Source of the DNA: Conexibacter woesei Iso977N
Lineage (GTDB): Bacteria > Actinomycetota > Thermoleophilia > Solirubrobacterales > Solirubrobacteraceae
Assembly (NCBI RefSeq): GCF_000424625.1
Contig: NZ_AUKG01000003.1
Coordinates: forward strand, 372,001-436,000
Length of the DNA stretch: 64,000 nucleotides
Direction: 5' to 3'
Part shown: piece after piece, positions 57,924-61,239 of the stretch
Layout: every line of letters begins with the position of its first letter
Position numbering within the stretch: the first letter of the stretch is position 1
Program-made: the position numbers and the translations under genes
Notes under the pieces: generated by a model
Seen by the model: the letters and a program-made list of their open reading frames with translations, nothing else
Databases searched by the model: none
Told to the model about the DNA's origin: nothing

Positions 57924-60001
<2,078 letters not shown>

Positions 60002-60023
60002 CGCGGGCCGCGCGTCTGTCGGT

Positions 60024-60416
60024 GGCGTTCAGTGCGGGGCGGGCGTGGTGCCGCTCCGGGCCGGCTGGCGCTCATCGATGGGAGAGTGGCGTTTGCGGCG
60101 ACGCTCCACCGTGGCGGTGTGGCTCGGCGTGAGGGCGGCTCCGGGCGAGGGTTCGGGGGCCGAACGGGCGGGTCAACGGCAGTTTGGTGTTCGTATGGAA
60201 CCCCTGGCTGCCGTTGGCGAGGTCAGCGGTGCATTTGGGTCCTCTGCGAGCCACTGTGCACCGTTGACCCTGAGGTTCGGCCCCGAACGGCTCGCCCGGT
60301 CCCGGCGCGACGCTCAGCCACACCGCCGACGGTGGCGTCGCCGCAAACGCCACTCTCCCATCGATGCCCTCCCACGGACGCCTCGCGCCGCCACCAGCGC
60401 ACCGCACTGAGGCGCC
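60024..60416. repeat. 393-bp near-palindrome, MITE-like element candidate
   Basis: Arms 60024-60179 and 60261-60416 are inverted copies with small gaps. The first 32 bases of the inner block are identical in both arms (60073-60104 against 60335-60366; begins CATCGATGGGAGAGTGGC). Outer blocks GGCGTTCAGTGCGG and the inverse of CCGCACTGAGGCGCC also match, and the arms close at GGTCAACGG/CCGTTGACC. The 81-base centre contains shorter pairs (CAACGGCAG/CTGCCGTTG, CGGTGCA/TGCACCG). No transposase or clear target duplication is seen, so it is either a non-autonomous mobile repeat or a very large hairpin RNA. It fills most of the 503 bases between eno and the FtsB-like gene. Confidence 0.8.
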
Positions 60417-60504
60417 ACAGGCAACGGCAGCACCAAGACGCGTCGCGCCGACTTCCGTCGAGATGTGCAGGAACCCGTGGGCTGGGTGGCGAACCGCGCT
60501 GTAG

Positions 60505-60885
60505 ATGTCCCCAGCCCGCCAGTCCGCGGCGCACGCGCGCAACCGACCCTCCACGGAACGTCGCTCTCCGCAGCGGCCGCGTGTGGTCGCGGGCGGTGGG
60601 AGGGCCATCAGGTGGGATCGCGTCGGCCGGGTGGCGTTGCTCGTCGTCCTGATCGGCGTCGTCGGCCTCTATGTCGGGCCGGCGATCAGCTTCGTCTCCA
60701 CCTACCGCGAGGCCAAGGCCCGCCGCGGCGAGGTCCGGACCCTCCAGGCCGAGAACGACCGCCTCCGCGCCCGCAGGAAGGCCCTGCAGTCCAAGTCCAC
60801 GATGGAGCGCGAAGCGCGCCGCCTCGGCCTCGTCAGGCCGGGCGAGAAGCCCTTCATCGTCAGGGGCCTTCCGGGCGATCGCTAG
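60505..60885 (+). CDS. FtsB/DivIC-like septum formation initiator
   Basis: 126 aa. A basic cytoplasmic segment precedes one membrane span (VALLVVLIGVVGLYVGPAIS), then an extracytoplasmic coiled coil (REAKARRGEVRTLQAENDRL, RARRKALQSKSTMEREARRL) and the short family end GLVRPGEKPFIV. It would act in the divisome FtsQBL-type complex. The place after eno is conserved in many actinobacteria. Confidence 0.88.
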   Translation: MSPARQSAAHARNRPSTERRSPQRPRVVAGGGRAIRWDRVGRVALLVVLIGVVGLYVGPAISFVSTYREAKARRGEVRTLQAENDRLRARRKALQSKSTMEREARRLGLVRPGEKPFIVRGLPGDR

Positions 60886-60890
60886 GCCGC

Positions 60891-60896
60891 TAGCCT
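60891..60896 (+). promoter_or_regulatory. -10 hexamer before the gene at 60904
   Basis: TAGCCT ends seven bases before the ATG at 60904. Confidence 0.45.
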
Positions 60897-60903
60897 GGCG
60901 GCG

Positions 60904-61239
60904 ATGTCGGACTTCCAGAGCGCGTCGTTCCAGTGGCGGGAGGGTGAGCGGCGGGTGCGTGAGGCGCTGCCGGATGAGCGGATGGCGATGGATCGGGTCG
61001 TCGAGCGGATCCTGGCGGAGCTGCGGCGGCGGCTTGGTGGGGCGTTCACGATCGATGAGCTGGTCGCCCTGTACGACGCCGGGACCGGCTGGTGCACCGA
61101 CATCGCCTACGCGGTCGCTCCGGGTGCGCCGTGGGCGTGGGATGCCCGGATCACCGCCGACGCGGCGTTCGCCCGCTACGTCCGCGAAGCGATCGACTAC
61201 GCCGGCGGCCGCCAGCTCGACGCGCGCCCGGCGGACTGA
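60904..61239 (+). CDS. conserved hypothetical protein
   Basis: 111 aa, cytoplasmic. FQWREGERRVREALPDERMA and RILAELRRRLGGAFTIDELV, then LYDAGTGWCTDIAYAVAPGA and the helix AFARYVREAIDYAGGRQLDA. The GxGWCTDIA block looks conserved and functional, but I know no activity. The gene ends at a strong bidirectional terminator. Confidence 0.72.
   Translation: MSDFQSASFQWREGERRVREALPDERMAMDRVVERILAELRRRLGGAFTIDELVALYDAGTGWCTDIAYAVAPGAPWAWDARITADAAFARYVREAIDYAGGRQLDARPAD

What the first reader, a model, noticed from the sequence alone, without database searches (positions are those of the whole stretch)
60024..60416. 393-bp near-palindrome downstream of eno
Two roughly 155-base inverted arms, with 32 identical bases at the core block, and an 81-base centre that carries further pairs. 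In a single-copy non-coding spot this is far beyond a terminator. It could be a non-autonomous transposable repeat, a REP/BIME-like element, or a long structured RNA. Retained arm symmetry suggests recent origin or selection.
Basis: seen in the sequence. Interest (0 to 1): 0.7.

Follow-up and report, generated by a model that had tools for sequence, protein, structure and literature searches.

The report
Mobile palindromic repeat family behind genes
The long palindrome behind the enolase gene is one of about a dozen diverged copies of a DNA repeat that has moved around this soil actinobacterium's genome and settles just behind genes, where it probably ends or protects their transcripts; it resembles known bacterial palindromic repeats but is much longer.

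Summary
The palindrome is real. It spans about 60007-60430, has an exact 32-base core match, and folds far below shuffled sequence (z about -14). It is not single-copy. The genome (Solirubrobacteraceae, Solirubrobacter-like) holds 11 full or near-full copies of about 250-510 bp (L037 is half-armed), one more copy split across two contig ends, and about 23 sites of the 47-bp inner hairpin outside full copies. The nearest relative has about 12 diverged copies. Two other complete genomes of the genus, and all but one weak hit among 37 further relatives, lack the hairpin. Sites occupied here are empty in relatives (eno, L029, L030, L031, L034, L038), and two of the relative's copies are absent here, so the family has moved recently. 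No target duplication was seen. Copies mostly start within 30 nt of a stop codon. In the relative, 10 of 12 lie between convergent genes; 0 of 23 lie between divergent genes. Each copy is a long stem capped by two (sometimes three) hairpins. Best reading: a non-autonomous, REP/MITE-like composite palindrome that settles at gene 3' ends and probably acts in RNA as a terminator or 3' stabiliser. Defining features of REP and MITE were tested and not met, so it is not filed as either.

The parts
60007..60430 (+). whole element: region homologous to other copies, starting 5 nt after the eno stop codon
   Evidence: 72.6% over 60007-60430 with copy L029; similar limits with L031, L034, L035
60022..60171 (+). 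left outer arm (G+T rich)
   Evidence: self inverted alignment 60022-60418; repeat pairs I1, I2
60270..60418 (+). right outer arm (C+A rich)
60073..60104 (+). 32-base core block, exact reverse complement of 60335-60366; holds the conserved CATCGATGG motif
   Evidence: direct reading; ATCGATGG block invariant in 10 copies
60335..60366 (+). partner of the 32-base core block
60172..60218 (+). inner hairpin A, 47 nt
   Evidence: model R1, 56.2 bits; also occurs outside full copies
60222..60268 (+). inner hairpin B, 47 nt
   Evidence: model R1, 60.1 bits; also occurs outside full copies
58727..60001 (+). eno (enolase), the gene whose 3' end the element follows
   Evidence: 94% protein identity with G001 enolase
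60613..60885 (+). FtsB/DivIC-like small coiled-coil gene downstream (start codon uncertain; the open frame begins at 60505)
   Evidence: conserved next to eno in relatives by tblastn; the name is from general knowledge

Best explanation
It is a copy of a lineage-specific, non-coding, non-autonomous mobile repeat. Each full copy is a composite palindrome: two outer arms of about 110-200 nt, closed by two or three 47-nt hairpins that also occur outside full copies. Shown: dispersal within the genome, recent gain at the eno site and others, and placement just behind stop codons. Inferred: it spreads by copying, perhaps through a single-strand or hairpin intermediate, and it persists because landing at gene 3' ends is harmless or useful. 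Inferred: once transcribed behind eno it folds into a very stable stem that stops the polymerase or protects the mRNA 3' end. Between convergent genes it would do this for both strands.
For: Copies in own genome; subfamilies at 88-96% and 83-88% identity at unlinked sites. Occupied versus empty sites: eno-ftsB spacer without family palindrome in G001, G005, G002, G006; distance between flank matches, here versus relative: L029 469 vs 14 nt, G001 copies 447 vs 98 and 356 vs 15 in the own genome; L030 527 vs 16, L034 669 vs none, L038 453 vs 56; L031 586 vs 117 in G001 and also empty in G005, G002, G006. Position: nearest stop 5,2,18,73,260,-10,-1,13,30,-8,29 nt in own copies; G001 10/12 convergent against a 20% background; 0/23 divergent. 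Structure: z -14. Inner-hairpin covariation 39 cells against 18.4 expected, 0/500 shuffles. Arm mismatches 120 G-U against 57 A-C in the sense direction. In 394 kb of own loci and 160 kb of G001 loci every palindrome over 200 bp is a family copy.
Against: No target duplication and no transposase with matching ends were found, so the moving machinery is unknown. No U-run terminator is predicted. No transcript data. The outer stem shows only 23 of 144 pairs with double changes and no net covariation energy bonus. The G-U excess could come from transcription-linked C-to-T mutation and from shared ancestry of copies. Gene calls rest on open frames and GC3, not on an annotation.
Confidence: 0.7

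Rival explanations
1. An ordinary but oversized terminator: each palindrome grew in place from the resident terminator hairpin by slippage or template switching, and copies look alike through gene conversion or convergence.
For: All full copies lie behind a stop codon, and relatives carry ordinary hairpins there (G005 eno spacer: a 53-nt inverted repeat).
Against: Five unlinked copies are 88-96% identical over about 490 bp with unrelated flanks, and the same sites hold 14-56 nt or less between flank matches in G001. In-place growth does not give the same sequence at unlinked sites.
Confidence: 0.1
2. A REP/REPIN-type element moved by the genome's single IS200-like (RAYT) transposase.
For: One Y1 transposase in the own genome and one in G001. 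In G001 a weak family hairpin lies 11 nt behind the RAYT stop codon. No target duplication, as expected for HUH enzymes. Position behind stop codons matches REPs (PMC3733652).
Against: No GTAG or CGTC tag next to the hairpins. No family hairpin at the own-genome RAYT. RAYT also occurs in G003, G005, G006, where no family hairpin was detected. The G001 hit is borderline (E 0.04 genome-wide).
Confidence: 0.25
3. A structured non-coding RNA or 3'-UTR regulator kept by selection rather than a mobile repeat.
For: Polarity relative to the upstream gene in most copies, G-U excess, covariation in the inner hairpins.
Against: Patchy presence at unrelated genes, empty orthologous sites, no shared occupied site found between G000 and G001, no Rfam match to the element.
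Confidence: 0.12
4. An assembly artefact at a hairpin.
For: Contigs 3 and 2 end inside one other copy.
Against: The window copy is inside a contig, its arms are only 71% alike, and it is diverged from every other copy; G001, held as a single contig, has the same family.
Confidence: 0.02

Closest known systems
REP / BIME / REPIN (repetitive extragenic palindromes)
   Same: Dispersed palindromes in intergenic spaces, often within 20 bp of stop codons and between convergent or co-directional genes; G-T pairing noted in stems (PMC3733652).
   Different: REPs are 20-40 bp, tagged GTAG or CGTC, and usually abundant; here full copies reach about 510 bp, carry no tag, number about a dozen, and the repeating hairpin is 47 bp.
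MITEs (for example Coxiella QMITE2, Chunjie)
   Same: Short (about 500 bp or less), non-coding, inverted-repeat, dispersed, dependent on other machinery.
   Different: MITEs have TIRs of about 4-30 bp, direct repeats at the target, and are AT-rich (PMC10969869); here the arms are over 100 nt, no direct repeats were seen, and the element is GC-rich.
ERIC / YPAL and other stem-loop families
   Same: Whole element folds as one long stem-loop, intergenic, lineage-limited (PMC2267715).
   Different: Much shorter (103-169 bp in that survey), not described there with separately dispersed inner hairpin modules, and reported in Proteobacteria.
TIRtrons (RAYT genes bounded by long TIRs)
   Same: Long inverted repeats tied to a Y1 transposase, with moderately abundant TIR repeat families (PMC3733652).
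   Different: No element-like TIRs bound the RAYT in either genome.

Membership tests
REP (GTAG/CGTC superfamilies) | GTAG or CGTC tetranucleotide at one end of the hairpin | tested here: not met
   21 hairpins outside full copies with 16-nt flanks show no such shared tag
REP (GTAG/CGTC superfamilies) | unit size 20-40 bp | tested here: not met
   47-bp inner unit, full copies up to about 510 bp
REP (GTAG/CGTC superfamilies) | intergenic, close to gene 3' ends | tested here: met
REP/RAYT (REPtron) | cognate RAYT gene flanked by the repeat | tested here: inconclusive
   weak hairpin on one side of the G001 RAYT, none at the own-genome RAYT
MITE | terminal inverted repeats and non-coding | tested here: met
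   open frames inside differ between copies and none is conserved
MITE | target-site direct repeats in young copies | tested here: not met
   occupied and empty junctions show no duplication by eye
MITE | an autonomous relative or transposase sharing the ends | tested here: not met
   all arm matches in own genome and G001 belong to short palindromes or fragments, none brackets a transposase
ERIC | sequence homology to the 127-bp ERIC consensus | not tested
   no ERIC sequence was compared; difference judged from published size and host range only
Known structured RNA (Rfam) | match to a covariance model | tested here: not met
   no match within the element
Intrinsic terminator | hairpin followed by U-run | tested here: not met
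   0 found
Intrinsic terminator | transcription actually ends there | not testable with these tools
   needs RNA-seq or Term-seq

The most novel reading that the evidence does not exclude
A new class of non-autonomous element that specifically captures gene 3' ends, inserting without target duplication directly behind stop codons and installing a long cruciform-capable bidirectional terminator, with the 47-nt hairpin as the transposition substrate of the resident HUH (RAYT) enzyme.
Probability: 0.2. Interest if true: 0.65.

Novelty: new variant of a known kind. Interest (0 to 1): 0.4.

Why it matters
Interspersed palindromes are well studied in Proteobacteria but little in deep-branching actinobacteria. 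This family is unusually long, modular (hairpins inside palindromes, the hairpins also dispersed separately) and was recently active, with clean empty sites, which makes its mode of insertion directly testable. Its exact fit between stop codons suggests it rewrites transcript ends as it spreads. It also shows how such repeats break assemblies.

Tried and rejected
Single-copy palindrome: rejected. Plasmid or phage origin: no match of the window copy or the S1 copy in plasmids, of S1 in phages, or of the inner-hairpin core in viral contigs. Shared occupied sites between G000 and G001: none found; the sites tested are occupied in one and empty in the other (L036 and L032 are ambiguous because extra genes also differ there). 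attC-like site: the hairpin ends (GTCAAC/GTTGAC) do not fit GTTRRRY (by inspection). TIRs around the RAYT: none. Hairpins bracketing genes as cassettes (an AbiEi/DUF559 gene, a Phd-ParE pair): seen, but each hairpin is also simply near a gene end or start, so not pursued. Lenient nucleotide comparison of GC-rich flanks gave mostly composition noise and was dropped.

Full report
The observation. The region 60024-60416 is an imperfect palindrome: ungapped arms of 76 and 67 nt at 78% and 75% complementarity around an 81-nt centre, with an exact 32-base block, 60073-60104 against 60335-60366. Aligned to its own reverse complement it gives E 8e-42. It folds at -293 kcal/mol as RNA against -206 for shuffles, z -14.1, and z -14.2 as DNA. 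Nothing comparable exists elsewhere in the 64-kb window. The centre is two further 47-nt hairpins, so the fold is one long stem capped by two short ones.

It is a family. The window's own genome (5.70 Mb, 9 contigs) has many matches. Extracting and aligning them gives 11 full or near-full copies: the window copy, L029-L036, L038, and L037 with a single arm plus hairpins. A twelfth copy is split between the end of contig 3 and the start of contig 2. Three groups appear: S1 (L030, L032, L033, L034 and the split copy, 88-96% identical over about 490 bp), S2 (L031, L035, L036, 83-88%, with an extra inner stem), and a diverged rest that includes the window copy. The 47-nt hairpin (GTCAACGGTGCATTTGGGTTC-loop-GAACCCAAATGCACCGTTGAC and a CAG variant) gave covariance model R1. 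It finds 45 distinct sites in the own genome, about half of them outside full copies, 13 in G001, none in the complete genomes G002 and G006, and one weak hit among the other 37 relatives. Every palindrome longer than 200 bp in 394 kb of own loci and 160 kb of G001 loci is a family member. The host is a Solirubrobacteraceae member close to Solirubrobacter (eno 81% to S. deserti; 94% to G001).

It has moved. Behind eno, G001, G005, G002 and G006 have 403, 255, 227 and 185 nt before the next gene's conserved block and no family palindrome, against 611 nt here; about 150 nt next to that gene are conserved in G001. For other copies the distance between flank matches, here versus relative, is 469 vs 14 (L029), 527 vs 16 (L030), 669 vs none (L034), 453 vs 56 (L038), 586 vs 117 (L031); the L031 site is also empty in G005, G002 and G006 and the L038 site in G002. 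Conversely two G001 copies are absent from the own genome (447 vs 98 and 356 vs 15). Outgroup emptiness at eno and L031 shows gain rather than loss. No target duplication is visible.

Where it sits. With genes called from open frames and GC3, own full copies lie between tandem (8) or convergent (3) genes, and G001 copies between convergent (10) or tandem (2) genes. None is between divergent genes, although these are about 19% of gene pairs. By hand from these counts, 10 or more convergent of 12 at a 20% background has probability about 5e-6, and 0 divergent of 23 about 0.008. Distances to the nearest stop codon are mostly under 30 nt. In G001 the element often fills the whole convergent spacer. 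In most own copies hairpin A comes first relative to the upstream gene (all but L029 and L038; orientations). Hairpins outside full copies are less strict: 8 convergent, 7 tandem, 6 divergent by the same calls.

How it may work. The inner hairpins covary (39 double-change cells against 18.4 in shuffles). The outer stem has 23 of 144 pairs with double changes but no net covariation bonus, so selection on the stem as a whole is not proven. Between arms, G-U type mismatches in the direction of the upstream gene outnumber A-C type 120 to 57. This fits constraint on the transcript but also fits transcription-linked deamination, and related copies are not independent. There is no U-run terminator. 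I infer a 3'-end function (stopping polymerase or shielding mRNA) because of position and stability, not because it was measured.

What moves it is not known. The own genome has one IS200-like Y1 (RAYT) gene and so does G001. G001 carries a weak family hairpin 11 nt behind that gene; the own-genome ortholog has a different hairpin. RAYT genes also exist in relatives where no family hairpin was found. This is a lead, not a link.

Comparison. The placement matches what is published for REPs: predominantly between convergent and co-directional genes, mostly within 20 bp of stop codons (PMC3733652). But the size, the lack of the GTAG/CGTC tag and the nested build do not match. MITE criteria fail on target repeats and arm length (PMC10969869). 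Known stem-loop families such as ERIC and YPAL are 103-169 bp (PMC2267715). I therefore call it a new variant of the interspersed palindromic repeat kind, not a member of a named family. A full-text search for Solirubrobacter with palindrome and repeat found no description of such repeats judging by the titles and abstracts listed, and that library is incomplete.

Limits.

Noticed in passing
L195:3132-3178 (G001 C1:1466631-1466677): A weak family hairpin lies 11 nt behind the only RAYT (Y1 transposase) gene detected in G001; the own-genome ortholog (L155) has a different hairpin at the same place.
   Followed up: partly
L064:5914-6631: Two 47-nt hairpins bracket a Phd/YefM-ParE toxin-antitoxin pair.
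   Followed up: partly
L048:5845-6814: Two hairpins bracket an AbiEi_4/DUF559 gene; its start codon lies in the loop of one hairpin and its stop codon inside the other.
   Followed up: partly
L039 end (G000 C3:588641-588819) and L042 start (G000 C2:1-226): Two contigs end inside one S1 copy, so the assembly appears to have broken in the middle of the palindrome and the contigs may be neighbours.
   Followed up: partly
L034:6050-6250: The right end of this copy carries further tandem repeats (about 70 bp) of the element end.
   Followed up: no
L065:1-441 and L066:5896-6342: The start of contig 4 and the end of contig 1 share an aldehyde dehydrogenase 3' end followed by a family hairpin, so these contigs may overlap.
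   Followed up: no
L155:1213-1253: A GGCTGAGCC...GGCTCAGCC hairpin directly behind the own-genome RAYT gene could be that enzyme's own repeat; copies elsewhere were not sought.
   Followed up: no
window 60813-60913: Sub-threshold SAM-IV riboswitch match (21.2 bits against a cut-off of 38); most likely chance, as it overlaps the end of the ftsB-like gene.
   Followed up: no
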